From Branchiostoma floridae (taxonomy: Eukaryota > Chordata > Leptocardii > Amphioxiformes > Branchiostomatidae), in contig NC_049992.1 of the NCBI RefSeq assembly GCF_000003815.2, positions 19,607,111-19,671,110 on the forward strand: a DNA stretch of 64,000 bases, written 5' to 3'. Each line of letters starts with the position of its first letter. Position 1 is the stretch's first letter. Shown piece by piece: positions 2,269 through 56,900 of the stretch. The notes under the pieces are model-generated. The model was not told the DNA's origin. It saw only the letters and a program-made list of their open reading frames with translations, and searched no databases. A program made the translations under genes and the position numbers.

Positions 2269-3882
2269 CTAGTTTGAATGTGCAGAATCAATTGTAATCA
2301 TTAGCAGCTATAAAATACTGTTACTTGTTGGGAGTTGTTGGCAGTTGTTCTTGTTGCAAAAGTTGCAAATACTACGTATGGCTTACTGATCAAAATGATA
2401 TGTTCAAACTGATATACGACGTATATTCCTTCTGGAAAAAAATATTGTGCCAATTTGTGGTAAAAAGCAGCTTGTAATTAAAAGAAGAATTTGCATGACA
2501 TGATTTATCAATAGCAATGCCTAACGAACTGCGAGCACAACCCTGCCATCCTTGTATTTGTATTTATGGCGTATCTCTCAGCCTGGCGGTGCATACATGT
2601 TACCCATCGTGTAGTGAATACACCAACCTGTCATCCTTGAACTTGTACTTATGGCGGATCTTTCAGCCTGGTGGTGCATACATGTTACCAATCGTGTAGT
2701 GAATACACCAACCTGTCATCCTTGAACTTGTACTTATGCCGGATCTTTCAGCCTGGCGGTGCATACATGTTACCCATCGTGTAGTGAATACACCAACCTG
2801 TCATCCTTGTACTTGTACTTATGGCGGATCTCCCAGCCTGCTGGTGCATACATGTTACCCATCGTGTAGTGAATACACCAACCTGTCATCCTTGTACTTG
2901 TACTTATGGCGGATCTCCCAGCCTGCTGGTGCATACATGTTACCCATCGTGTAGTGAATACACAAACCTGTCATCCTTGTACTTGTACTTATGGCGGATC
3001 TCCCAGCCTGGTGGTGCATACATGTTACCCATCGTGGCCCCTGGCTTGGGAACAAGCTGGATGTCCGCCTGATATATAAAAAAAAAATAAAGTGACATCT
3101 AACAGCTACATGTCCAAGCATATCAGTCTTTACTGTGAGAAGATAAACTATCAGGAACATCGACAAACAACTGTGAAAGGTTGGCCCTTATTAACACCGA
3201 GAAAGCGTATTTCAATTTATTTAAACGCTGCAAACGTGGAAACAAACTTCGGCCCATTCTATGCCTCAATCATTAGATCATATGTCCTCGCTGTTATATT
3301 TGCATAGACCGATCCCGCAAGGTGTTGTCTAAACGAGACTACTACTATCTGGGGAATACCTTCAAGGAATATTTTAAGTTTTTGGGGAAGTTAAATACTG
3401 TACCTATGGCCTTAACACTGAAGCGTCACCGAGAACACGTATTATAATCATTGACCTCCCACTCAAACTCTTTACTTATAAGCATCGCATTTTCAGGTCC
3501 AATATACACAGCAATAATTTTTGTAGTCTTTTCTTTAAAAAATGTTTTTAACACTGACTATATGGGGAAAGCTCTATGTAAGTATGATGTTGACCATTGC
3601 TGTCCTTACCTCCTCAATTTGACGGCCCAAACCCGCTGCAAGTCCACTGGTCTCCTTCAACAGGTCCTTGTACTCATCGTCAAACTTGTCAATCTGTTTC
3701 CCCAGGTAGTTCTGCAGACCGCTCACCACCTTCTCCTGGTGGTTTTCCATTACGCCTTCCGCGATCCTGTCACCGAGTTTGCTGACGACTTTCCCGCCTA
3801 TTTCTCCTGCTGCCGCAGCCAGAAACGCAGCGGGGAGAGCCCTCTTGGTCCTTACAGAGCCTTCGGATGAAGTCTCTGCCAT
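2121..3882 (-). CDS. Unknown protein, three exons, 3' end not found
   Basis: I do not recognise this protein. Three exons chain with matching phase: 3882-3610 (phase 0 out), 3068-2968 (leaves two bases), 2268-2121 (takes one base, phase 0 out). Together they encode about 174 residues. The start is an ATG followed by a Ser/Glu-rich stretch, an Ala/Gly-rich hydrophobic segment (residues ~15-32) and a charged, probably helical region up to residue 91. Exon 3 supplies a Gly/Cys-rich part with three cysteines (GCFGTGY, DPCFQ, TGCP). A good donor (cct|gtaagt) after exon 3 means at least one more exon, which I could not find. The 3' end of exon 2 is embedded in an 85-bp tandem array that repeats its donor. 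The first hydrophobic segment is not a classical signal peptide. Function unknown. Confidence 0.6.
2526..3035 (-). repeat. 85-bp tandem array copying an exon end and its donor
   Basis: The phrase gtagtgaatacac(c/a)aacctg recurs at 2611, 2696, 2781, 2866 and 2951, an exact 85-bp period; a sixth, degenerate unit begins near 2526. On the minus strand each unit is ~65 bases of exon 2 (ATGGGTAACATGTATGCACC onward) plus gatgacag|gttggt (gtttgt in the real one) and ~20 bases of intron. 85 is not a multiple of 3, and reading past the real donor meets TAA in the next unit (HDG then stop). Confidence 0.85.
2968..3068 (-). CDS. Unknown protein, exon 2 (abuts donor array)
   Basis: Acceptor tttatatatcag| then GCG GAC ATC CAG. 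101 nt encodes ADIQLVPKPGATMGNMYAPP and continues to KYKYKDD plus two bases, ending gacag|gtttgt. The two leftover bases join the first base of exon 3 to give Ser, so the phase agrees. The last ~65 bases are the top unit of the 85-bp array at 2526-3035. Confidence 0.55.
3610..3882 (-). CDS. Unknown protein, exon 1
   Basis: 91 codons from the ATG at 3882 to ATTGAGGAG followed by donor gtaagg. The long open frame on the plus strand over the same DNA (3451-3870) is its antisense shadow. The segment ALPAAFLAAAAGEIGGKVV is followed by a Lys/Glu/Asp-rich stretch that could form an amphipathic helix or coiled coil. Confidence 0.6.
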
Positions 3883-32900: not shown

Positions 32901-35900
32901 TTGTGTTAGCCAGTCGACTTCAATATCTTCCGCCGTGAGATCCGTTATACGCAGTTGTTTTGACCGTCAACTGAACACATTCTCCTGTCCACCGTTTTTT
33001 CCCACCCTGTTATAGCAGCCAACATTGTAATCCGTGCCAAGTTAAGTCTACTTACAGCGATGTAAATTCCGGGGCCTGTCTTATCGTGTAGTTTCTTATT
33101 CGGAACGGAGTTCATGAAATTCCACCAGTAGGCTTATCTCTGCCTGTCAATCAAATGCCTTCAACCCCTCCCTTCTATTTATCCTGACCATACACATTTC
33201 CTAGATAACACATCTGTTTCCGCGCCACTAGTTCTTTCAAAACATTTAGATAAATGGTGCTGGTACACCGTGTTTCTTCTGGTAGACCTAGTGACACACA
33301 CCCCCAAAAAAGCACACTCTCCTACTAAATTTAGTTTCGGCTCCGACTGTTTTTTAACGTGTTTTAGGCCTTTTATTGTCGGGACTTCTATTCTGTACTG
33401 TTTTCGTCCTGTCCACCGACCAAACAAAATAAAGCCTGACAAAAATTTAAAAAAAAATGTCGAAAAACAGCCGGAGCAAAACCTCTGCTTGGAGAGTGCA
33501 GAAAGCGCCCATCACATTAGTAAATAAATAAAGAAATCTTTATTGAGACACGACAAAAGTACAGCGACTTTCGTAAGGTCTACACGTATAACAGCTTCTA
33601 ACAGTACAACTAAACACGCATATATGGATATCTGTAAGTATGAATAAATCAACATATAGGGTCTAGCTTGTCATTTACACTATTGGTTCTATGGTATAAA
33701 CATTCGTGGATATATTTGCCTACTTGTACACAGTACGAACGCAGGCTGCAACAGACCAACAACCCTGACCAGTACGTCTGTTTTAAAATCAGTTTAGCAT
33801 AACCTCTATGAAATGATGACATTATGCAACAGCAAAACATGAGCACCGACTCTTTCCCTAAACGTTTGCGGCGAACACCGAACCATCTCGGGTTTGGCTT
33901 GAGTTAGTGATGGGGATTAAGCGATTACTACCGGTTTATCCACTTTCTAATCTAATCAAAACAGAAAGGCTAATCGGTGGGCTACAGAAAAACATGTATT
34001 GTCGCTACTACCGGTAGTTCGCTCCAAGGATATACACACAGTCAAACCTGTCTGAGCGACCACCTCTTCTCAGCGACCACCTGGCCATTTCGACCGCTGT
34101 TTCTCGGTCCCGATTTTTTGACGTAAGCATTAAGCGACCTTTTCTCAACGACCACCTGGCCAACGCGACCGCGACCGGCCCAAATTGGGACCCATAACGA
34201 CCGCATCATTTTCAAAATTGAGTTTTTCATCGATTTTTGATGATAACTAGTGCGGTTTTGTGCTGAAATCGGCCAGTTTGCGTCGGATTTTGTATATCCA
34301 CTTTCTAATCTAATCTAATCCAAACAGAGAGGCTAATCGTTGGGCTACAGAGAAACACGTGATGTCGCTTCTACCGGTCGATCGCGTAGGATATACCTTC
34401 AACATACCCTTAACCGTGCAATACTACTTGGTGTGTGGACCGAGTGCTCTCTGTTCGCAGCTAGGAGCTAGAATTACGAGGAACTTAGCATAGGCGGGAC
34501 TAAATCGCAAGGGTCTGGAGTGAGCTGCCATTTGGCGCTAACTCAGGTGACCTCAATACGACAGTTGATACCCTAGGTGCGGCCATACAGCTGTAGGTTT
34601 TGAACCAACGACGCCAGAAATAACCCCTTCTCTTTATGTAGTAAGACACTACTATTTTATGACTGTGTCGCGCACCCGACATGCACGTTAATACGTTAAT
34701 AGAAAGGTTTGCAGTCCTCAAGCCGGCTTTACAAATCAAGAATTGAGCTCGGCCGAGTTGTCAGCGAGCTCTAAATTACAAGGAGGCATGACCCTGATGC
34801 CTACGGACAAATGGCAGAGTTTCTTTGTTGGCATCAGGGTCATACCTCCTTGTAATTTAGAGCTCGCTTACAACTCGGCCGAGCTAAATTCTTGATTTGT
34901 AAAGGGGGCTTCAGGACAGGTCCTAAATCCGTGGTCCACTGTTTATTGTGCTTGTCGAAAAGACCTAGGCTAATTTCTCCAGTACAATAATAAACCTGTA
35001 AATACTCATTGTACATAGTGTATGTCGTCTCTGTCAGGACTGGTGGACGAATAACTCTTACTTACTTACTTGAGATTACTTTGAATTTTAGTTTCTTATC
35101 TAAATACCGAGAATTATTAGAGCGAAATACCTTTATATTTATATATATATATATAATTAGCAAAAGCCGGTTCTATTTTACTATCTGTCCATGTGTGCCG
35201 CCATGTTTGTTGTCATGTGACACTCCTGTTAAGATTTTATTTTGATCATTCCGCTGTACAGGTGAACTCAGTAGCACAGCTGCGTGATGTGGATAAGAAG
35301 GACCTACAGATAGTCGGGCTGTCCCGGCCGGAGCAGAAGAGGTTCAAGAGATATTACGACAAGAGATTTGGGACGTGGAGCAAGCTGAAGAAGGTGAGTG
35401 CACGCGGCAAAACTTTCTTTCCCAGTATAGAGAATCTTAAGGTGGGGTCACACATGCGTATATATTCAAGTCCGTTTGAGGTGCGTATGAAGCTCTTAGT
35501 CTCTACCAGGCTCCACAGGTCGCGGGAAAAATAGTACAAATTGGACAAATATAGACACATAACATGCCAGATGAGATTGCTGATCGAGAAGTATATAATA
35601 CACTCGTTCTCATTGAAATGTCGGAAATGGCATTTTTTTGGTCGAAAAATAAATCGGCTTTATTTTCACTGAAAACTACTTGGTTGTTTGGAAAAATTCC
35701 TCTTTTAACCATAGCCAAAAAATGGCAACTTACTGTAAATGCAGAAATGTTCGCGGTGGATTAATGTTCGCGGTTTTCGCGGTGACCTCTTCACCGCGAA
35801 ATTAAATCCACCGCGAATATTTTTCCATTATGATATAAGACTGCGGTCTATGGTGTTACCGCGAAATTAAATCCACCGCGAAAAGTCCTTTTTCCCGCTA

Positions 35901-41900: not shown

Positions 41901-44900
41901 AGGTAACGTCACAGTCTTCTCTCATGGTGCAATAATAAGATAAAGCGACAGGCGGCGCTGCTGCACGGCATCATTATCACACCTGCTCAAACATCCGGGT
42001 GGCGTGTTTCCTAAGTCCTGGTAACACCCACAAGCTGTTACCATATATAGATGTCGCCGCGGGGTGAAATTGACGGAAGGGGCGTGGTCTTCCAGACAAC
42101 TCACATATGGTACTCTAAAATGGTCACACACAGGCATGGTGAGCCGTGGTTTGGGGGGAACAGCGTTGTGCGATCGGACGGTTCCCCACCATGGTATAAC
42201 ACAAACACGGAGCCCCTGTTGTTGGGTTAAAAAAGCGACACATACCGACCGCTTTGTAAACTCCATGGTGCCAAACCAACTCGACACTCGCCGGAAATTT
42301 TAGGATAACGTCGATTTCAGTTCCGTGTCTGTTTGCTGCATCTTGGTTCTGGGTTCGAATCCGTCACTCAGTGGGGCTCTTTTCACTGTTAATGTTGCTT
42401 CTTATTGCCTTTACCTTGCTTTAACTGTTTCTATTGTAGAAACTTTTGGTAAAGAATTCATAATATTTGACGATATTTCTTTTTTCATGTTTGTTCACTG
42501 TGAGTTACAATCATGCGTCGAAATGACGATGTTCCAGCTTGGCTTATATAAATATTTCTTAAAAGAAAATTATCATTTCGATAAAAGTTTCCTTTTCAAA
42601 TGTTTCCAAACGTTTTCTTTTCTTGAGCATAAGTGCTATGTTAAAAGTACACAAAAATTGTACTGGCGATACATATATCATTGAACAGTAGTAGTTGGAT
42701 CATTGGGCTGCCTTTCTTTGTAGCTATTTACATTGTAAACGAAGTTGGTAACAATAGTTTGGAAAAATCAAAAGACTGTGTCAATGGATCTTTGTCACAA
42801 TCTCTGATGTGACCAGTTGTGGTCGCTGTCGCGCTAATGTTTAAACTCACGTGACTATGGGTCTATGACGTAGTTTTCTTTGCCATATTAATTGAAAAAG
42901 TTAAACTTGAAATTTACCATTTAAGATTGGATGTGCATATACAACAATTGTTACATACAAATGCGCCATATGAATTCTCTGAAACGACTCCATTCGAATA
43001 TTTTCTATTTTCATACTCTTCAGATCCAGTGTGCGGTGAAGACGCTGACCAAGGAAAGATTCGAGACTGCACAGAGCGAGTTCTTCAAGGAGGCTACGAT
43101 CATGTGTAGCATGGAGCACGACAACATCGTGCGACTGTACGGCATCGTGCTGGACTTGTGTCTAGGATCGCTCATGATGGTAGGGTCAGCAACTTGTCCT
43201 AGCTAGATCTTATTGTTATTGGGTGGGCCGACTACTCACTCTTTGCAGCCAGGGGCCGAATTGCGAGCTTACAATAGGCGGGGCTAAATCGCAAGGGTCT
43301 GGAGCGAGCTGCCATTCGGCACCACCCAGGTGACCTTAATACGACAGTAATTGCCCCAGGTACGGCCAGGGTACTGTAGGTACTGTAGATCTGTGAGATA
43401 ACCTGTAAATATTCTCCCCAATCTCTTCCCCTTTGATGGCATGCTTAACACGTGTTCGAGGAAGCGAAAGTATTTTAGTTTGACGCTACTAAAAGTGACT
43501 CATATCATGTCAAACTAAGAAACGGCAGCAGGCTTATCACAGTATGATACAATGTTTTGCCAATTGTTTTCTTTATCTAATTGTTTTTCGTCTGTCGTTT
43601 TTAAAGTGTTTTTGTAAGAAAATTTGATGAATCTGAATGCGTGGATGGAATTCTATCCATTATTCGTGTCTTAAGCCAGGTGAAAAAAAAAAAATTTCAG
43701 TAATGGTTTTAGCTTGGTGGTGTCCTTAAAAAAAGTTGCATTCACGGAGAGCCTGCGAACGAACCACCCGTATCTGCTTGTAACAGTAATGGATCTCACT
43801 CATGAAAAGCCCGGAAGTGTAGGTTCTCCTCTGGAGTTTAAAGAGAACACAATTAAACAAGTTTTTTTTTCACTCATAATCAGGTGTCGGAGTTGGCTCC
43901 CCTTCGCTCCCTGTCTGACTGTTTGCGGGATTGGAACCAGAGACCGCTGTTCCCTGTGGTCATCCTGTGTGACCTGGTCATCCAGATAGCCAGTGGGATG
44001 GAGTATCTGGACAGCAAAGGGCTCGTCCACCGAGACCTTGCCGCTAGAAATATTCTCGTCTTCTCCCCGACTTTGGTAAGCACATACTTGTAGTGTATTG
44101 TTTTATTAGATTATGTTTTGCATTGTTCATGATAGGAAGTTCTACTGGACAACGTACATTTTTTTTGCATATTTTGCAACTATCAATCTTGTGTGCATGA
44201 TAATGCATAACGTTTGGGACCGCGTGTGTGATAATTCTTCACGTTTGGTACCGCATTGTTGGCAGCGACACCTAGCTGCAATGTGGAATAGTACAAGTCA
44301 GTCTTGCTGTGAGGCAGGTAACAGAGGGTTACCGATACGGAGGCTATTGATTATGCATAGGTCTTGGTTGTGAAAAATAACCTTGAACTCTAGTATGTTC
44401 TTGAAGTTTACACGAACTCTCACTGGCTGACTTTAATGCCCCCCCCCCCCCGTGGCAATTGTAGGGCAGGCCGCTAGGGGCGCGATTTAGTCAGGCTATA
44501 TGTTCTTGCGGTTTTAAAAATTTGTCTGGCTTCTCAACCGACAATAGATGATAAAATGGATAGGTCCAAAGTTTGTCTTATTATCAATGATATTTGATGA
44601 TAATTACCAATTCTTATTACTTGACACAGGTAAAGGTGAGTGATTTTGGCCTGACGAGAGCGCTCGGCGTGGGGAGGACGTACTTCAAGACAGCTACAAC
44701 GGACAGGAAACTGCCGTTCGCATGGTGAGTAACCAACGTTCGTCATCAGAGGGTACAAAAATACATCCCCAAATTTATGCACTTCATACTATTGGCGATG
44801 TAGTTTGCCATACTCCAGGTTTGGTGGTAACTATATCAAATACAATGTTTCACATTAAGAACTAAAGCATTATATGCCGAACGCTCTACCAGTTACGCCA

Positions 44901-47900
44901 CGCCCGACGCCATGTGTTAACGTTCTCGTTGCTTTCTGTTATGTCTTGCCTAAGATGTGCACCAGAAGCGATTAACGTTAACGTTCTCGTTGGTTCCTGT
45001 TGTGTCTTGCCTAAGGTGTGCATCAGAAGCGATTAACGTTAACGTTCTCGTTGGTTCCTGTTGTGTTTTGCCTAAGGTGTGCACCAGAAGCGATTAACGT
45101 TAACGTTCTCGTTGGTTCCTGTTGTGTTTTGCCTAAGGTGTGCACCAGAAGCGATTAACGTTAACGTTCTCGTTGATTCCTGTTATGTCCTGCCTAAGGT
45201 GTGCACCAGAAGCGATTAACGTTAACGTTCTCGTTGGTTCCTGTTGTGTCCTGCCTAAGGTGTGCACCAGAAGCGATTAACGTTAACGTTCTCGTTGGTT
45301 CCTGTTGTGTTTTGCCTAAGGTGTGCACCAGAAGCGATTAACGTTAACGTTCTCGTTGATTCCTGTTATGTCCTGCCTAAGGTGTGCATCAGAAGCGATT
45401 AACGTTAACGTTCTTGTTGGTTCCTGTTGTGTCCTGCCTAAGGTGTGCACCAGAAGCGATTAACGTTAACGTTCTCGTTGATTCCTGTTATGTCCTGCCT
45501 AAGGTGTGCAGCAGAAGCGATTAACGTTAACGTTCTTGTTGATTCCTGTTATGTCCTGCCTAAGGTGTGCATCAGAAGCGATTAACGTTAACGACCTCGT
45601 TGGTTCCTGTTGTGTCCTGCCTAAGGTGTGCACCAGAAGCGATTAACGCTAACGTTCTCGTTGGTTCCTGTTGTGTCCTGCCTAAGGTGTGCACCAGAAG
45701 CGATTAACGTTAACGTTCTCGTTGATTCCTGTTATGTCCTGCCTAAGGTGTGCATCAGAAGCGATTAACGTTAACGTTCTTGTTGATTCCTGTTATGTCC
45801 TGCCTAAGGTGTGCACCAGAAGCGATTAACGTTAACGTTCTCGTTGATTCCTGTTATGTCCTGCCTAAGGTGTGCAGCAGAAGCGATTAACGTTAACGTT
45901 CTTCTTGATTCCTGTTATGTCCTGCCTAAGGTGTGCACCAGAAGCGATTTACGTTAACGTTCTCGTTGATTCCTGTTGTGTTTTGCCTAAGGTGTGCATC
46001 AGAAGCGATTAACGTTAACGTTCTCGTTGGTTCCTGTTGTGTCCTGCCTAAGGTGTGCATCAGAAGCGATTTACGTTAACGTTCTCGTTGATTCCTGTTG
46101 TGTCCTGCCTAAGGTGTGCACCAGAAGCGATTAACGTTAACGTTCTCGTTGGTTCCTGTTGTGTTTTGCCTAAGGTGTGCACCAGAAGCGATTAACGTTA
46201 ACGTTCTCGTTGATTCCTGTTTCTGTCCTGCCTAAGGTGTGCATCAGAAGCGATTAACGCTAACGTTCTCGTTGGTTCCTGTTGTGTCCTGCCTAAGGTG
46301 TGCAGCAGAAGCGATTAACGTTAACGTTCTTGTTGATTCCTGTTGTGTCCTGCCTAAGGTGTGCACCAGAAGCGATTAACGTTAACGTTCTCGTTGGTTC
46401 CTGTTGTGTTTTGCCTAAGGTGTGCACCAGAAGCGATTAACGTTAACGTTCTCGTTGATTCCTGTTATGTCCTGCCTAAGGTGTGCATCAGAAGCGATTA
46501 ACGTTAACGTTCTTGTTGATTACTGTTGTGTCCTGCCTAAGGTGTGCATCAGAAGCGATTAACGTTAACGTTCTCGTTGGTTCCTGTTTCTGTCCTGCCT
46601 AAGGTGTGCATCAGAAGCGATTAACGTTAACGTTCTCGTTGGTTCCTGTTGTGTCCTGCCTAAGGTGTGCATCAGAAGCGATTAACGTTAACGTTCTTGT
46701 TGATTCCTGTTATGTCCTGCCTAAGGTGTGCACCAGAAGCGATTAACGTTAACGTTCTCGTTGATTCCTGTTATGTCCTGCCTAAGGTGTGCATCAGAAG
46801 CGATTAACGTTAACGTTCTCGTTGATTCCTGTTATGTCCTGCCTAAGGTGTGCAGCAGAAGCGATTAACGTTAACGTTCTTGTTGATTCCTGTTATGTCC
46901 TGCCTAAGGTGTCAACAGAAGCGATTAACGTTAACGTTCTCGTTGATTCCTGTTATGTCCTGCCTAAGGTGTGCAGCAGAAGCGATTAACGTTAACGTTC
47001 TTCTTGATTCCTGTTATGTCCTGCCTAAGGTGTGCACCAGAAGCGATTTACGTTAACGTTCTCGTTGATTCCTGTTGTGTTTTGCCTAAGGTGTGCATCA
47101 GAAGCGATTAACGTTAACGTTCTCGTTGGTTCCTGTTGTGTCCTGCCTAAGGTGTGCAGCAGAAGCGATTAACGTTAACGTTCTTGTTGATTCCTGTTGT
47201 GTCCTGCCTAAGGTGTGCACCAGAAGCGATTAACGTTAACGTTCTCGTTGGTTCCTGTTGTGTTCTGCCTAAGGTGTGCACCAGAAGCGATTAACGTTAA
47301 CGTTCTCGTTGATTCCTGTTATGTCCTGCCTAAGGTGTGCATCAGAAGCGATTAACGTTAACGTTCTTGTTGATTACTGTTGTGTCCTGCCTAAGGTGTG
47401 CATCAGAAGCGATTAACGTTAACGTTCTCGTTGGTTCCTGTTTCTGTCCTGCCTAAGGTGTGCATCAGAAGCGATTAACGTTAACGTTCTCGTTGGTTCC
47501 TGTTGTGTCCTGCCTAAGGTGTGCATCAGAAGCGATTAACGTTAACGTTCTTGTTGATTCCTGTTATGTCCTGCCTAAGGTGTGCACCAGAAGCGATTAA
47601 CGTTAACGTTCTCGTTGATTCCTGTTATGTCCTGCCTAAGGTGTGCATCAGAAGCGATTAACGTTAACGTTCTCGTTGATTCCTGTTATGTCCTGCCTAA
47701 GGTGTGCAGCAGAAGCGATTAACGTTAACGTTCTTGTTGATTCCTGTTATGTCCTGCCTAAGGTGTGCACCAGAAGCGATTTACGTTAACGTTCTCGTTG
47801 ATTCCTGTTGTGTTTTGCCTAAGGTGTGCATCAGAAGCGATTAACGTTAACGTTCTCGTTGGTTCCTGTTGTGTCCTGCCTAAGGTGTGCACCAGAAGCG

Positions 47901-50900
47901 ATTTACGTTAACGTTCTCGTTGATTCCTGTTGTGTCCTGCCTAAGGTGTGCACCAGAAGCGATTAACGTTAACGTTCTCGTTGGTTCCTGTTTCTGTCCT
48001 GCCTAAGGTGTGCATCAGAAGCGATTAACGCTAACGTTCTCGTTGGTTCCTGTTGTGTCCTGCCTAAGGTGTGCATCAGAAGCGATTAACGTTAACGTTC
48101 TTGTTGATTCCTGTTGTGTCCTGCCTAAGGTGTGCACCAGAAGCGATTAACGTTAACGTTCTCGTTGGTTCCTGTTGTGTTTTGCCTAAGGTGTGCACCA
48201 GAAGCGATTAACGTTAACGTTCTCGTTGATTCCTGTTATGTCCTGCCTAAGGTGTGCATCAGAAGCGATTAACGTTAACGTTCTCGTTGGTTCCTGTTGT
48301 GTCTTGCCTAAGGTGTGCACCAGAAGCCATTAACGAGTTCGTCTTCACATCAGCCACGGACGTGTGGAGCTTCGCCGTCACCATGTGGGAGATGTTCAGT
48401 TACGGGGAACAGCCGTGGGCCACTTACAGCGGGGAACAGGTACGTGATCTATCAGTAATATATTTAAATCCATTTGCATGCATACTACAGTATACAGCAA
48501 TAGCCGCATTACATCATCCTCCTAACGCCCGGTCCCCAACGGCATTAGCCTATGAGGCCCTGCTATCTAGATGCCTACCAGCGGTTATTATGATTGCCGC
48601 CACAAACCAGCTGTCAACCAATCAGAGAATAAGCTTTTCTTGGTTTTTTTGTTGTCGAAAGCTGTCTCGCAAAGGCCGCTGGGAAGCTATCAGCCAATCA
48701 TGTTACGTCTTACATAGCACCATCCTCCTACGCCCGATCCCCAACGACTGACTGCCCATATAAGGGTAAGCTCATTAATATTCATAAGCAGGGCGACGAG
48801 GAACTGAAAGTAACTGCGGGTAGGCCATGAGAAAGCAGGGCCCCATAGGCTGAGTCAGCTAGCCGTTTGGGACCGTGCGTAGGAGGATGCATTACATTGG
48901 ATGATTTTCGGAGGGGAAGCATGCTAACGTGATAAAATGTGGGCTCTTCAAATCAATGAGGTAAATTTATTTGAAATACAATTTACAATACGAGTTGAAG
49001 CGACGCGTGCATTATAAAATAAATCATAAATCTGCTATACAGAACAGCTCTCAGAGTTTCAATGCACTGGGCTTAAAGGATTGTTCATGCCGATTTCGTC
49101 TGCTGCAACGGGCGATAACTAAAGCCCCGGTCACAAAGCGCGTACGATTCCTTGCGATTCCTTCCGATGCGCAGGATAAGCGCAGTGCGTCGTAAGTCGG
49201 TGGAGAATCGGAAGCAATGGTTTAAGTATATAAAGCCGTGGTCACAACGCGCGTAGTGCATCGTACGATGAGGTCATAAGAGCGTGCCTGCGTCAATCGC
49301 AGTGGATCATAGTAAATCGGGGAGCGTCGTATGGCGAAAAATAGAGCTGAAATGGATTTTGAACATGTTCAAAATTTCGCTATCGTCGTAAGATTTTATT
49401 TGCCCCCATAGCAGAGTTCATTACGGCAATTTTTGTCTACTGATGAGGTTATAGATTTATGATTTTTTAGCATGTTGTGATGGTTTCAGTTTTCCCTGAT
49501 ATTGTCGATATTGACGAAAAGGGGAAATATATCAGTCGCAACTGCCACAGTCGCAACCAGAGAACAGCGCGCCACGCACAGGTGATGCAGACAATTGTTT
49601 GATCGCTTCATGCACGTGAGTTTATAATTAGATCAAATCTCAGCTCTCGTCGGTCTTGGGTCAGTTTACCATAATCGTAATAACCATGGGGACAACTCGA
49701 ACATAAAGGCAGGCTCTATGAGTCGGAAATATATATGATATAATGCTTATCATTTGATTTTTGTATGATGGCATCTTTTTGTTGATAGCATATCATGATC
49801 ATGACGATCTTCGAAAGAGCCTGACACGTAGAGCCTGCAAGCAGGCCGAGATAACCATACCAGTACTCACGCTTGATTTCAACTTTTGCTTGTAATACTC
49901 TTGTTGTCATGGTCTTTTTTAATTTATTTTTACAGTTAAAGATATTATAGGAAGGTATTTAACAGCTATGTCCACATTTTGTTGGTTAAAGAAGCACAAA
50001 AGCGGTCAGACGGCTATACAGAAGAGACACAAGTAAAAAATCTTGCGACGCTGGAAAAATTTTGAACACCATCCGATGCGTTGCGATGGCTTGCGATGCT
50101 TACGATTTTCTTGCGATGTACTGCGCTCATCGTACGATATGCGGAATAGTCCATCGCAAGGAATCGTACGCGCTTTGTGACCGGGGCTTTACGGTATGAC
50201 GTTGTGCTATACTTGCTCTATAAGTTGACATAAAATTACGGAGAGGACAGTCATCATCATTCGGAATGTTTTGAATGGTTCATAATGTTGCCTGGTCTCA
50301 CCCTGAGGACAGAGAAGGCAACTGTTAACTGGACCAGCTTTGTTTGATGAACTCTACAAGCATAGGTTCGGCTTCGACTGTTTTTGACATGAAGAAAGCG
50401 TTTTTGACATAATAGTAGGGTCTATTCCGGAGTCTGTCGGCTAAAAACTCGTCTTATCATGAAAAAAATGGTATAAGACATAAATCCCGGCAAAAACGCC
50501 TAAAATTAAAAAAAAACAGCCTGAGTCGGTCCTCTGCTTGGTTAATACAAAATTCCTTCCAAAGATTATTTTATTTTAATAGCTTGATAGTGTAGCGTTC
50601 GGTTGCAAAAGCATACTTTATTTAGTGTTCTTAAACCAGTCAAGGTGTTTACGGCAAAGTTAATGTCAGCCAACCGAATTAAATTATGGCTCAGCACTCA
50701 GCAGCATCCGTTTGTACTGCAATGGAACTTCACGTTTTAATGATTTTATCTTGCAACTACATTCTGGGAGGCGATAACCCTCACTGTGTACAAGTAGGCA
50801 AATATATCCACGAATGCTTATACCGGTAGAACCAATAGTGAAATGACATGCTAGACCCAATATGTTGACTTATTCAAACCTTTAGATATCCATACATGTC

Positions 50901-53900
50901 TGTTTAGGCCTAAGTCACATTTAATTTCCGAACCGGGGCCCGGTGGGGCTGTTTGAGAAAACGAAAAATAGAAATGTATACGTAAAAATATACACAAATT
51001 ATGCCCACGACTATTCTCTTTACGTCTTGTGTAATTTGGTGACTTTTATATCATACTTTTCGGTCCCGAAAGTTGCCCGGCCGGGCCCCTTTGTGGGAAT
51101 GTGACCTTAGCCTTAGTTGTATTGTAAGTAGTTGTTATACATGTGGACCTTACGAAAGTCGCTGTACTTTTATCGTGTCAATAAATATATCTGTAAATTG
51201 CAGATTCGGCAGGCCATTGGCCCTCCCATGTACCACCGCCTGGAGAGACCCCGGTTCTGCCCCTTCAGCCATTACCGCATCATGCACGAGTGTTGGAGTC
51301 ACAAGCCTAAAGAACGGCCCACCTTCACCAAGCTGTGTCACGTGCTGCAAGAGGTACGCGCTGATTGGTCAATCTATTAACCTCATTAGCATGCTCTATG
51401 AGTATGTCTTGTTGTTACCTGATGACATATCCGAATCCGTGTTTTTTTCCCGTCCAGTTCAATGTTGTTGGCCTACTCTACGAAAGTTGGCTACAATACA
51501 GTAAGACTTACTGAAATAGAATTGATTATCAGCCTGACAGCCAGAGAAAAGAAAACAGGCTCTTACACATACTAATTCTGATGTCCATGACTTTTTTTTC
51601 AAATTTGCAGGCGAAACCAGAGCAAAGAGTCGCCATTGATGACGTCGACGGTGACGTAGTACATAACCTTATGACCTTAAGGCTGGTGACGTCATCACAG
51701 TACTGGAAAAACCCGGTGAATCTTAGAGGCACTTTATGATTTACATATTCCGTATGTTTGACAGNNNNNNNNNNNNNNNNNNNNNNNNNNNNNNNNNNNN
51801 NNNNNNNNNNNNNNNNNNNNNNNNNNNNNNNNNNNNNNNNNNNNNNNNNNNNNNNNNNNNNNNNNNNNNNNNNNNNNNNNNNNNNNNNNNNNNNNNNNNN
51901 NNNNNNNNNNNNNNNNNNNNNNNNNNNNNNNNNNNNNNNNNNNNNNNNNNNNNNNNNNNNNNNNNNNNNNNNNNNNNNNNNNNNNNNNNNNNNNNNNNNN
52001 NNNNNNNNNNNNNNNNNNNNNNNNNNNNNNNNNNNNNNNNNNNNNNNNNNNNNNNNNNNNNNNNNNNNNNNNNNNNNNNNNNNNNNNNNNNNNNNNNNNN
52101 NNNNNNNNNNNNNNNNNNNNNNNNNNNNNNNNNNNNNNNNNNNNNNNNNNNNNNNNNNNNNNNNNNNNNNNNNNNNNNNNNNNNNNNNNNNNNNNNNNNN
52201 NNNNNNNNNNNNNNNNNNNNNNNNNNNNNNNNNNNNNNNNNNNNNNNNNNNNNNNNNNNNNNNNNNNNNNNNNNNNNNNNNNNNNNNNNNNNNNNNNNNN
52301 NNNNNNNNNNNNNNNNNNNNNNNNNNNNNNNNNNNNNNNNNNNNNNNNNNNNNNNNNNNNNNNNNNNNNNNNNNNNNNNNNNNNNNNNNNNNNNNNNNNN
52401 NNNNNNNNNNNNNNNNNNNNNNNNNNNNNNNNNNNNNNNNNNNNNNNNNNNNNNNNNNNNNNNNNNNNNNNNNNNNNNNNNNNNNNNNNNNNNNNNNNNN
52501 NNNNNNNNNNAATATCATACTTTTCGTTCCGATGGCTGCCCGGCCAGGCCCCGGTTTAAAAGGTGACGTAGGCCTATATTACGCTTCTAGCTAGCCGTCC
52601 ATTCGTAAGACCCTTATTTAAGGGGAAACCCCTATTAGCCCCTCTGGTAGGACGTTAAATGGAGGTTCCGTGTTGGAGGAAAGCCACACGTCGAGCACGT
52701 TAAAGATCACATCACACTTACCGAAAAGAGTAGGAGTCCTTCCCTGTGTGAGTGGTTCGAAACCTACAGTCCCATGGCCGCACCCGGGGAAATTACTATC
52801 GCTTTGAGGTCACTGAGTGGCGCCGCATGGCAGCTCGCTTCAGACCCTCGCGATTTAGCCCCGCCTATTGTAAGCCCCTTGCAATTCAGCCCTGGATGCT
52901 ATGAGAGAGTATTCAGCCCACCCAATAACAATAGCCTCTGACAGTAAGAGGTTGTGTAACACAGACTGTGTATCTTTCCTACTCGCAGTGACAACCATGG
53001 CTGGCTCGGCGCGTTAGATGAAGACAAGATCGGCTTCTTTGACCCTGAGATAACGGAACCGTTCCAAACGGAAGCAGAGAAGCAAGAAAAAGCTGCCGCA
53101 GCGATGGACAAGAAAAGAAAACTGAAGAAAAGTACGATTCGACTATACACTCAAAATGTATTTTATTGATTTTTTTTAAGAGCTGTTGTTAGAACTTTAA
53201 TCTAATTTGCAGAATTATATACATAATTATTAATTTGGTGGAACAATAGATTGTAGTTTTCATCGTACAAAAATTAATAACATCATATTTGTCAACACTA
53301 TAGCACCGCAGCCGTCAACAGTACAGAAAGAAGGGAACCATTATGAAACGTAAGCATTTTTTTATTTCCATATATGTCGGTAACCTGTCGTTTCACCACA
53401 CTGTCTGTCAGATACAGTATGTTTCGCTACATGGCGAGTCATTTGGCTACATGGAAACATCGTTTCTCTACGTTTGAATACCTTTTGTCTAATAAGTCTT
53501 ATGGTATAAGAAATCGTTCACTTCATGAATCTACAGATGTTAGACAAATGATAGTTAGTTAAATGTAGCAAAACGACATTTGCCATGTAGCAAAACGATT
53601 TCTGCAGCATAACGTCAACGAAACGACTTCACTTTTACCAAGTAGCGAAAAGACTAAAGCAAACTGACACTGTAGCGAAACGACCGGTTTCCTCATTATC
53701 CCTATGCTTTTGTTTGTTTTGAAGTCTGCATGTCTTTGTAAGAACATGTTAAAGTAAGAGCTATCTGTCTCTGTTGATACATCTCTAAATCACAAAGTCT
53801 ATTGCACAACAGTCGGCCATCTCCTAAGCATGACGGCTTCAGCGCGCTGTCCAAGTTCTAAGTACATGTAAAAGTAAGATCTATCTGTCTCTATGCTGAT

Positions 53901-56900
53901 ACATCTCTAAATCAAAGTCTATTGCACAACAGTCGGCCATCCTCTAAGCATGACGGCTTCAACGCGCTGTCCAAGTTCTAAGTACATGTAAAAGTAAGAT
54001 CTATCTGTCTCTATGCTGATATATCTCTAAATCAAAGTCTATTGCACAACAGTCGGCCATCCTCTAAGCATGACGGCTTCAACGCGCTGTCCAAGTTCTA
54101 AGAACACGTACAAGTAAGAGCTATCTGTCTCTGTTGATACATCTCTAAATCAAAGTCTATTGCACAACAGTCGGCCATCCTCTAAGCATGACGGCTTCAA
54201 CGCGCTGTCCAAGTTCTACATGAGCATGCGCGGGAAGCGGCGGCCGGGTGACGGGCAGTCGGACTCGGGAGGGGGCGCTTCTTCCTCTGCAGAGAGAGAC
54301 CAGTATTGGTAGGTGGCGCTTCCTTTTGTGCGGAGGGAAACACATGCTGTGTGGCGTGGTTATAACCCCGTCACATGTAGCGAAAATCGATCGGACGACG
54401 AGTTTACGAGCTCTAAATTACGAGGAGGCATGACCTGATGCCGACGAGGAAATGGCATACTTCCCCCCTTTCCCGTCAGGGTCATGCCTCCTCGTAATTT
54501 AGGGTCATGCCTCCTCGTCGCCCGATCGATTTTCGCTACATGTACCAGGGGTATAATGACATGACTTTCTGTGCATGCATAAAGTTTTTCACTTGAAGAC
54601 GACTTTTAGGGGATACTTTTTAGTGCATTGTTCCTCAGCTATTTGGCTGAAGATTTAGTCATAGACGGTCATTCTTGACAATTTCAAATAATGAGTTTCA
54701 CCTTTAGCTGCATCTAAAGGTTGCAGAATAACTTTTATCTTTTTGGATGTTTGTTTATGTTTGTTGTGGATGCTACATCAAAAAAAAAGGAAATTATATA
54801 TACAAAAAACTTAACATTCTCGTTGCAGTTCGCTTCAGGAAGATACACTTCAAGAGAAGCCCGGTAAGAAAGTTTATTTTTATGTACCTGTCTCTAAGGT
54901 GTTTATTACTAATATCTCCGCCTGGCGAATTTTGAACAAGCGCATTCTTACTAATATTCCTTTGTTGCAATTTCTTACTAATATATTCCTTTGTTGCAAT
55001 GGTATATTTGTCTGTTTTACTTAAGCCAAAATTACTAATACACAAATACACTCTGTATAAAGGGTTGTTGTGGTGCATATTTAACGAAGCAATTAGGATA
55101 TAGCAAAGATTGATATACTATCACTCAAAGTTATAAGTCATACAGATCTTTGAAAGGACCAAAATGTGTAACATTTTCGTATTTATTTGTAGCACCCTGT
55201 GCATATTGGTACAGTCGCCGGCACATGTAGGTACATGGTTAGCAAACTTTGTTAGAAAGCAGGACAAAATCTGGATTTTTTTTTCATATTATCAGATACG
55301 CCGAAGGAAGAACGCTCGGAGTCCGTAGACAGCCGTGGTGAGCCGAAGACATCGACGGTGAAGTTTGAGTTTCCTCCCGCCCAGCCCGAGTCCGGCGGTG
55401 CGGCGGGCGGAGTGGAGGACAGGCGGCACTATGAGAACCTGAACGGGACAGACTTACCAGGAGAACCGGTATGTCAGACAATTCAGAATTGACATATATT
55501 CTTACGTACCATATTTAAGGTGGTATCTAACTGCACTTGGGGCACCGGTGCGGCAATGCGGGGTTCGAAAAATACTCAACAAATTTCAGAGATAAAGGAC
55601 GAATTTTCGTACGTTTTGTGTATGTTGTTGTCTTCTAAGTTATACTTTTACGTATCACACAATATCTAGATATCGATAATTTAAAAAAAAAATCAGAGAA
55701 AATAACACATCAGCGCCGCAGAAACGAACCCCGCAGTGCCGTACCGGTTTCCCAAGTGCAGTGAGATGTCACCTTTACAAAGAACATTGACAATTATTTT
55801 ACAATCGTTTTACCAAGACGCAAGTGACTGTACCGTATTTAATCAGTGACATGTAGCCTATCTTATCTATCTAGATAATAATTCTAGTGCAAAATCTAGC
55901 CCAGTTGTTGAGTGCCGGTATATGTAACATTTGAAGAAATGACAAACAATACTCTAGTCTAAATATCCTAACTTTTGCAGGACCCGGATGTAGACCACGC
56001 CCTCATGCCGCTCTCGCCCAGACCGGACTATGACGTACCCAGACCCCAGCCTCGTCCTGAGGCAGTCGGAGCTGACGCAGACGGCCAGGAGACGTCAGTT
56101 GATGACGTCACGTACGACGTTCCCTCCCTAAACCCCCGTCCTTCCACCATGTACTTCATGCGCATGCCCGACCTGGGGTGCGAAGGGTTACTAGACGAGG
56201 TCATGTCAAGTTTCTCTACTGAGACACTAGAGAGTCTGGGTGTAGACGAACCGCCCAGAAGTCGTCCAACAAGTCAAACCGTCAAACGGGCGCCTCTTGC
56301 GACAGAGGAAAGTGACTCTCCTATTGTTTCAAGAACTAGGCAAAGAAACGAGTCCGCTCCTTCCGAGTTACATATATCTGAACCAGAGAAGACGAAGGCG
56401 TCATCCTCCAAAGTCTTAGATTTGAAAAGTAAGAAGAACGCCAGCGGTAAGAATGGCGCTCGTAGTAAACTCTTGAACGAGGTACCAAGACAGTCTCCAA
56501 AAGCGACAACTAAGGACCTGAAATTACAGGCATCTAAGAAAAGTACTGGAGTCAGTAAGACTCACTTAAGTAGTCGAACGATCGGTAAGGCGGGTACCGA
56601 TGTGCCTTCAAGACAATCTCCAAAACCTATGTTGGTCTTAAAGGAAGACGAAACTTCTGAGAAGTCAACGAGGGCACCTTCGAGTGAACGGTCACAAACA
56701 AGGGTCAAAACAAGTAACGGGTCTTCTAAACAGGCCTCAAAACCTGTGGGTAAAGCAGAGAAGAAGCCGATGGCAACGTGTCAGTGTGGGAGGAACGGGG
56801 CACGTGCGGCAGGGAAAGGTTCTCCCAGTGAGACAACAAAAGTGACGCGGAAGACGAGCCCCAAGGACGAAAAAGAGGAAGCAAGTAAAAAGTCGCACAG

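What the first reader, a model, noticed from the sequence alone, without database searches (positions are those of the whole stretch)
44913..48336. Fifty-five tandem copies of a complete 3' splice site in front of a kinase exon
Every 61-bp unit repeats the branch-like gttaac, pyrimidine tract, gcctaag and the first ~20 bases of exon 7 (the Trp-Cys-Ala-Pro-Glu segment of the kinase). The copy-to-exon distance (3358 = 55 x 61 + 3, explained by four 62-base and one 60-base units) shows the array runs without a break into the real acceptor. Use of any upstream copy would extend the exon by 61n bases and meet a stop (AGC GAT TAA, or AGC CAT TAA from the last copy) within about 27 codons. So the spliceosome must pick the last of 56 near-identical sites, or the gene makes mostly non-productive RNA.
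Basis: partly seen in the sequence, partly recalled or inferred. Interest (0 to 1): 0.93.

Follow-up and report, generated by a model that had tools for sequence, protein, structure and literature searches.

The report
Fifty-six-copy splice-acceptor minisatellite in lancelet
In what appears to be a lancelet tyrosine-kinase gene, a 61-letter stretch carrying a complete splice signal is repeated 55 times in front of the real exon; repeats of this sort ("mirages") are already known from lancelets, so this is a very long example and a good natural test of how cells pick the right splice site.

Summary
Window 44916-48335 is a 61-bp tandem array with 56 GCCTAAG acceptors. The last (48313) is the real 3' splice site of a 127-nt kinase exon; the other 55 all lead to a premature stop. 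Decoy 2 is identical to the real site from -53 to +7, so nearby sequence alone cannot tell them apart. The gene is an ACK/TNK-family kinase in a genome that looks like Branchiostoma floridae.

The kind is known: lancelet tandem repeats that duplicate exon-intron boundaries, published as "mirages" (PMC3087553, PMC3902484), reportedly without disturbing splicing. In this assembly I found a globin and an ADH example matching the published kinds, two donor-side sets in a paralogous kinase, and one at 2542-3036 of this window with 4 to 16 copies across eight related loci. The kinase array is the longest I saw.

Best reading: an inert minisatellite, with splicing steered to the last acceptor by the real exon and its donor (inferred). 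Copy number needs long reads.

The parts
44630..44724 (+). upstream kinase exon (VKVSDFGL...LPFAW), ends in the Trp codon (phase 2), donor ATG|GTGAGT
   Evidence: reading frame and splice sites
44725..48312 (+). intron of 3588 nt when the last acceptor is used; 230 nt if the first decoy were used
44916..48335 (+). 61-bp minisatellite, 56 copies, running from the intron into the first bases of the exon; unit GTGTGCACCAGAAGCGATTAACGTTAACGTTCTCGTTGATTCCTGTTGTGTCCTGCCTAAG
   Evidence: TRF; unit list; consensus
44955..44955 (+). first decoy acceptor; AAG|ATG instead of AAG|GTG, gives an immediate stop (TGA) when joined to the upstream exon
45016..45016 (+). decoy acceptor 2, identical to the real acceptor from -53 to +7
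46412..47766 (+). stretch holding a 501-bp exact repeat (copies begin at 46412 and 47266, 854 bp = 14 units apart), within which units 25-32 equal units 39-46
48313..48439 (+). real exon ([20 protein letters not shown]...GEQ), 127 nt, acceptor CCTAAG|GTGTGC, donor CAG|GTACGT
43024..43179 (+). kinase exon IQCAVKTL...GSLMM
43884..44075 (+). kinase exon VSELAPL...[16 protein letters not shown]
51204..51353 (+). kinase exon IRQAIGPP...LCHVLQE
35157..35534 (+). open frame holding an upstream SAM_TNK-type segment, marks the ACK/TNK family (exon edges not determined)
   Evidence: ORF; Pfam SAM_TNK E=5.5e-9

Best explanation
It is a 'mirage': a single-locus minisatellite made by tandem duplication of the intron-exon boundary, here grown to 56 copies. 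An old, conserved phase-2 intron was there first; a segment from the branch-like TTAACG in the intron to a TTAACG about 20 bases inside the exon was duplicated, and the copies then multiplied and were homogenised by unequal exchange or slippage (inferred from the block repeats). The upstream copies are not kept by selection for protein or, as far as the sequence shows, for splicing. Most transcripts are probably spliced correctly to the last acceptor, because only that copy begins an exon of normal length (127 nt) ending in a good donor; wrong choices would carry stop codons and be destroyed by nonsense-mediated decay. Shown: the array, its register, the stops, the conserved intron, other boundary arrays in the same assembly. 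Inferred: how it arose, how the last site wins, and that the gene is expressed.
For: Array and register. Three related kinases share the intron site without an array at that acceptor: paralog L056 (366-nt intron), L057 (about 512 nt), L059, so the intron predates the array. 26 distinct units among 55; the APE proline codon is C/T/G in 23/20/7 of the fifty 61-base units, so decoys are not held to the protein; 48 of 61 columns are invariant, and the GCCTAAG columns would all be invariant by chance with P=0.17, so no sign of selection on the acceptor. Array-like behaviour: a 501-bp exact internal repeat at 14-unit spacing. Same kind of array elsewhere in the assembly: globin L025 158 bp x 4.2; ADH exon L061 59 bp x 6.9 at its acceptor and 33 bp x 9.8 at its donor; kinase paralog L056 11.9 copies at one donor plus a looser set at the next; window 2542-3036, 85 bp x 5.8, with 4-16 copies across eight related loci and a single exon match at two others. 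[quoted passage not shown] PMC3902484). Donor of the real exon scores 5.5 against 3.5 for the unit's donor-like site (human frequencies recalled by me).
Against: No RNA evidence here. Exon definition is not a clean discriminator: 53 of 55 decoys are followed 60-62 nt later by an acceptor-donor pair of their own, so a decoy unit could also be defined as a short exon. The first decoy would make a 230-nt intron against 3588 nt for the real site, which distance alone would favour. RNA folding gave no consistent difference that would hide decoys: the real branch region ranks 2, 8 and 6 of 56 for openness at three window sizes, its AG 13, 5 and 3, but its pyrimidine tract 45, 49 and 43 and the whole site 25, 56 and 47; with unit order shuffled 12 times the branch region was more open than the decoy mean in 9 of 12 and the AG in 5 of 12.
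Confidence: 0.7

Rival explanations
1. Recursive splicing clears the array. Because the exon begins GTGTGC, each decoy is an acceptor directly abutting a donor-like site (AAG|GTGTGC). Splicing the upstream exon to any decoy leaves ATG|GTGTGC, which could act as a new donor and jump to a later copy; the end product is the same correct mRNA whichever copy was used first, so errors are repairable.
For: 53 of 55 decoys have AAG|GTGTGC, scoring 3.5 against 2.8-5.9 for five authentic donors of the gene; 2.8% of 4282 GT sites on the + strand of the window reach that score. Juxtaposed acceptor and donor is how ratchet points are described in Drosophila (PMC8605326, passages). The three acceptor-side arrays seen (this one, globin L025, ADH L061) all repeat AG|GT, though one ADH copy has AG|GC.
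Against: The regenerated donor ATG|GTGTGC scores only 1.5, below the 3.5 of the next unit's donor; by the donor competition reported in PMC8605326 that favours keeping the 61-nt piece. The AG|GT in the globin and ADH copies scores low (0.5 and -0.2). GTGTGC at this exon's start is also found in paralogs L056 and L057 without an array, so it is explained by the Trp-Cys codons. Three arrays are too few to test enrichment. A 61-nt intron is very short.
Confidence: 0.1
2. Poison-exon cluster: single units or small multiples are included as 61n-nt exons in a share of transcripts; 55 of 55 decoy entries lead to stops, so the array lowers kinase output, possibly in proportion to copy number.
For: 55 of 55 decoy entries end in stops when read on through the array; each unit has acceptor, branch-like motifs and a donor-like site 60-62 nt away.
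Against: No RNA data; no sign of selective upkeep of the acceptor columns (P=0.17); published mirages are said not to generate aberrant mRNAs. One-unit inclusion itself was not run as a separate transcript; models acceptor choice only.
Confidence: 0.07
3. The array is real but its length in the assembly is wrong (collapsed, inflated or a mix of two haplotypes).
For: PMC3087553 reports that a globin mirage was 'aberrantly assembled' in a draft and had 6 and 3 units in two haplotypes; PMC3902484 reports 2 against 7 and 3 against 6 units for PGBD5 in two sequence versions. The array here holds a 501-bp exact internal repeat. The window has four runs of N elsewhere (gaps or withheld stretches).
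Against: The array has no N, 26 distinct unit types in mixed order, and reads without a break into both flanks; only one locus was found in the assembly.
Confidence: 0.25
4. The reference allele of the kinase is no longer working, so the array is tolerated because nothing depends on it.
For: Behind the kinase domain (about 51.61-51.74 kb) the linker-like and SH3-like pieces lie in different frames; the SH3-like piece has a weak match in L057 (E=0.033).
Against: Five kinase exons join in frame with conserved [11 protein letters not shown] and APE motifs and canonical sites; the frame change could be a sequence error, a haplotype, or a splice site I did not recognise; the pieces were too short for a Pfam match.
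Confidence: 0.08

Closest known systems
Amphioxus 'mirages': minisatellite-like duplications of exon-intron boundaries (globin BflGb6, BflGb9, Adh3; PMC3087553; term credited there to Canestro et al. 2002, which is not held and was not read)
   Same: Tandem units spanning an intron end and the start of an exon, with AG/GT signals in many units, concerted evolution within the cluster, in Branchiostoma
   Different: Reported globin clusters: 3-6 units of 150-160 bp; Adh3 units 10-72 bp. Here 56 units of 61 bp in a kinase gene
Lancelet PGBD5 (and, as cited there, troponin C) boundary repeats, PMC3902484
   Same: 60-bp and 108-bp tandem repeats overlapping splice sites; copy number differs between sequence versions
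   Different: 2-7 imperfect units, not 56 near-identical ones
Tandem duplication of AG|GT as a source of introns (Rogers model, as discussed in PMC3087553; Rogers 1989 itself not read)
   Same: The duplicated unit contains AG|GT
   Different: The intron here is older than the array: related kinases share its position and phase
Recursive splicing / ratchet points (Drosophila; PMC8605326, passages read)
   Same: Acceptor directly abutting a donor-like site
   Different: No RNA evidence; weak regenerated donor; in tandem array, not single sites in a very long intron

Membership tests
amphioxus mirage | tandem repeats that span an exon-intron boundary | tested here: met
   units carry intron tail, AG and first ~22 exon bases, in register with the real acceptor
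amphioxus mirage | occurs in a Branchiostoma genome | tested here: inconclusive
amphioxus mirage | splice signals present in many units | tested here: met
   56 of 56 acceptors keep GCCTAAG (by construction of the search, but no spacing gap); 53 of 55 decoys keep AAG|GTGTGC
amphioxus mirage | concerted evolution / turnover within the cluster | tested here: met
   mean pairwise identity 0.946 among fifty 61-base units, 26 types of 55, 501-bp exact internal repeat
amphioxus mirage | regular splicing not disturbed | not testable with these tools
   no RNA data
amphioxus mirage | length polymorphism between haplotypes or cells | not testable with these tools
   one haplotype only; no second locus found
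recursive splice site (ratchet point) | juxtaposed acceptor and donor | tested here: met
   AAG|GTGTGC in 53 of 55 decoys
recursive splice site (ratchet point) | regenerated donor stronger than the downstream exon donor | tested here: not met
   1.5 against 3.5 with recalled human frequencies
recursive splice site (ratchet point) | splicing intermediates or lariats | not testable with these tools
   no RNA data
ACK/TNK kinase | kinase domain closest to ACK1 plus SAM_TNK segment | tested here: met
   PDB: apart from one EGFR entry with two kinase stretches per chain, the best are Activated CDC42 kinase 1, 1.7e-60; SAM_TNK 5.5e-9

The most novel reading that the evidence does not exclude
The array is a run of 53 back-to-back acceptor|donor pairs that the spliceosome really uses: transcripts enter at early copies and are cleaned by repeated re-splicing (or lost as poison exons), so that kinase output depends on array length. 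More generally, lancelets tolerate boundary arrays because AG|GT in each unit makes wrong choices repairable.
Probability: 0.1. Interest if true: 0.85.

Novelty: new member of a known kind. Interest (0 to 1): 0.5.

Why it matters
It is the longest boundary array I saw (56 units; others in this assembly at most about 16 units among those examined; published ones I read of, up to 7 units for PGBD5). Decoy 2 matches the real acceptor for 60 consecutive bases, so the locus is a natural experiment on what, beyond the local site, tells the spliceosome which of 56 acceptors to use. The 85-bp family, with 4-16 copies in eight related loci and a single exon match in two, offers a ready series for copy-number effects and for how such arrays start and grow.

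Tried and rejected
Selection on the decoy acceptors: rejected for lack of evidence (P=0.17 for invariance of the seven columns). RNA structure hiding the decoys: three units fold better than shuffles (z -4.43), but accessibility of the real site is not consistently higher and shuffled unit orders scatter around zero (one search used a branch window one base off, one search corrected it). A dispersed element: not supported, 24 of 24 matches lie in this array. A known RNA family: none at gathering threshold in 43800-49500. Intron created by the array: rejected, related kinases have the intron. My first pattern search had the wrong spacing between the two motifs and did not list the array; it is no evidence. 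Simple microhomology collapse at the origin: TTAACG stands at both ends of the duplicated segment (44917 and 48330), but the two are 55 bases apart in the last copy while the unit is 61, so both were kept; the exact route is unknown. Survey for boundary arrays: 47 of 51 loci from L017 on were scanned around the match (9 globin, 30 kinase, 8 ADH; L056-L059 looked at apart); 2 of 47 had arrays across a match edge (L025, L061). Many kinase matches lie in long open frames, so few boundaries were sampled, and this is no frequency estimate. Searches in print: (library of open-licence PMC papers only) listed no report of this kinase array; I did not search for the gene by name.
Full report
What is there. 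Window 44916-48335 is a 61-bp tandem array (TRF: 56.0 copies, 94% matches). Each unit ends in GCCTAAG; the 56 acceptors lie 60-62 bases apart (50 x 61, 4 x 62, 1 x 60). The last copy runs into the exon 48313-48439. The exon before it ends at 44724 in GCATG|GTGAGT; exons 43024-43179, 43884-44075, 44630-44724, 48313-48439 and 51204-51353 join in one frame to a kinase piece with [11 protein letters not shown] and APE. Its best solved relatives, apart from one EGFR entry with two kinase stretches per chain, are Activated CDC42 kinase 1 (1.7e-60); Pfam gives PK_Tyr_Ser-Thr at 3.6e-71 and, for an upstream piece, SAM_TNK at 5.5e-9. It is an ACK/TNK-family gene.

What the decoys would do. Joining the upstream exons to each of the 56 acceptors gives an open frame only with the last; 55 of 55 decoys meet a stop, 43 at codon 27, the others at 0, 20, 29, 47 or 49. 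The first copy has AAG|ATG and gives TGA at once. Pyrimidine content of -20..-5 is 11-13 of 16 in all 56. Decoy 2 is identical to the real site for 53 bases upstream and 7 downstream. What singles out the real site must therefore lie further into the exon, or in its position. I infer that the 127-nt exon with a good donor (5.5 bits against 3.5 for the unit's donor-like site; human frequencies recalled) does this.

Because the exon starts GTGTGC, 53 of 55 decoys are acceptor and donor back to back (AAG|GTGTGC, 3.5 bits; authentic donors of the gene 2.8-5.9). This allows two further readings: recursive splicing, in which a wrong choice is repaired, and poison exons of 61n nt. Against the first, the regenerated donor ATG|GTGTGC scores only 1.5, and work on Drosophila (PMC8605326, passages seen) says the stronger donor wins. 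It also weakens a simple exon-definition argument, since decoy units could be defined as short exons. Neither can be settled without RNA.

How it changes. 26 unit types occur among 55; 48 of 61 columns are invariant among the fifty 61-base units, and mean pairwise identity is 0.946. Units 25-32 equal units 39-46, within a 501-bp exact repeat 854 bases apart. This is what unequal exchange produces, but it is also where an assembly could go wrong. The APE proline codon varies (C/T/G in 23/20/7), so decoys are not coding; the acceptor columns show no more constancy than chance (P=0.17). TTAACG stands at both ends of the duplicated segment. The unit was found nowhere else.

Age. Three related kinases in the assembly share the intron position: L056 (366-nt intron, ATG|GTGAGA ... 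TAG|GTGTGC), L057 (about 512 nt, ATG|GTGAGT ... CAG|GTGTGC) and L059 (ATG|GTAGGC ... CAG|GTACGC); none has an array at that acceptor. The intron is older than the array.

The known kind. PMC3087553 (passages) describes minisatellite-like duplications of intron-exon boundaries in amphioxus globin genes, credits the name 'mirages' to earlier Adh work, and states that Adh3 data and globin RT-PCR suggest no interference with regular splicing. PMC3902484 (passages) adds PGBD5 and cites troponin C. The original Adh paper is not held. In this assembly I found: a globin locus L025 with a 158-bp, 4.2-copy acceptor-side array; an ADH exon L061 with a 59-bp, 6.9-copy array at its acceptor and a 33-bp, 9.8-copy array at its donor; the kinase paralog L056 with 11.9 copies of about 91-95 bp at one donor and a looser set of about 155 bp at the next; and, in this window, 2542-3036 on the minus strand, 85 bp x 5.8, at the donor of an exon read ADIQLVPKPGATMGNMYAPPGWEIRHKYKYKDDR. 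A protein search with that exon and the next gave 120 matches; counting those that lie in rows, eight loci (this one included) hold 16, 14, 7, 7, 6, 5, 4 and 4 copies, mostly 85 bases apart, and two further loci hold a single exon match with no copies listed (the 14-copy locus has two double-length steps and may hold 16; the locus on C1 has partial copies only). In a scan of 47 loci, 2 had arrays across a match edge.

Which genome. The assembly is unnamed, 513,431,437 bases in 431 contigs. The globin and ADH arrays fit what is published for B. floridae; the genome size of B. floridae is recalled. PMC12373286 (passages) only names the reference GCF_000003815.2 and 19 chromosomes.

Verdict. It is a mirage, a known kind, and the longest seen here. 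Most likely inert, with correct splicing to the last site (0.7). Recursive splicing (0.1), poison exons (0.07) and a damaged gene (0.08) remain open; separately, the copy number may be wrong in the assembly (0.25).

Noticed in passing
window 2542-3036 (-), exon 3068-2968: Donor-side boundary array, 85 bp x 5.8; the same array has 4-16 copies in eight related loci (this one included) and none listed beside the exon in two others: a natural copy-number series.
   Followed up: partly
L061 (C6:27454842), 1122-1526 and 1712-2035: One ADH exon has an acceptor-side array (59 bp x 6.9) and a donor-side array (33 bp x 9.8) at its two edges.
   Followed up: partly
L056 1399-2539 and about 3200-3670: The paralogous kinase has donor-side arrays at two neighbouring exons, neither at the intron that bears the array in the window gene.
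   Followed up: partly
L025 954-1601: Globin exon with a 158-bp, 4.2-copy acceptor-side array, like the published BflGb6 type.
   Followed up: yes
window about 51610-51740: Linker-like and SH3-like pieces behind the kinase domain lie in different frames; damaged allele, sequence error or unrecognised splice site.
   Followed up: partly
window 53739-54218: 120-bp x 4 tandem array, 94% matches; not checked against exons.
   Followed up: no
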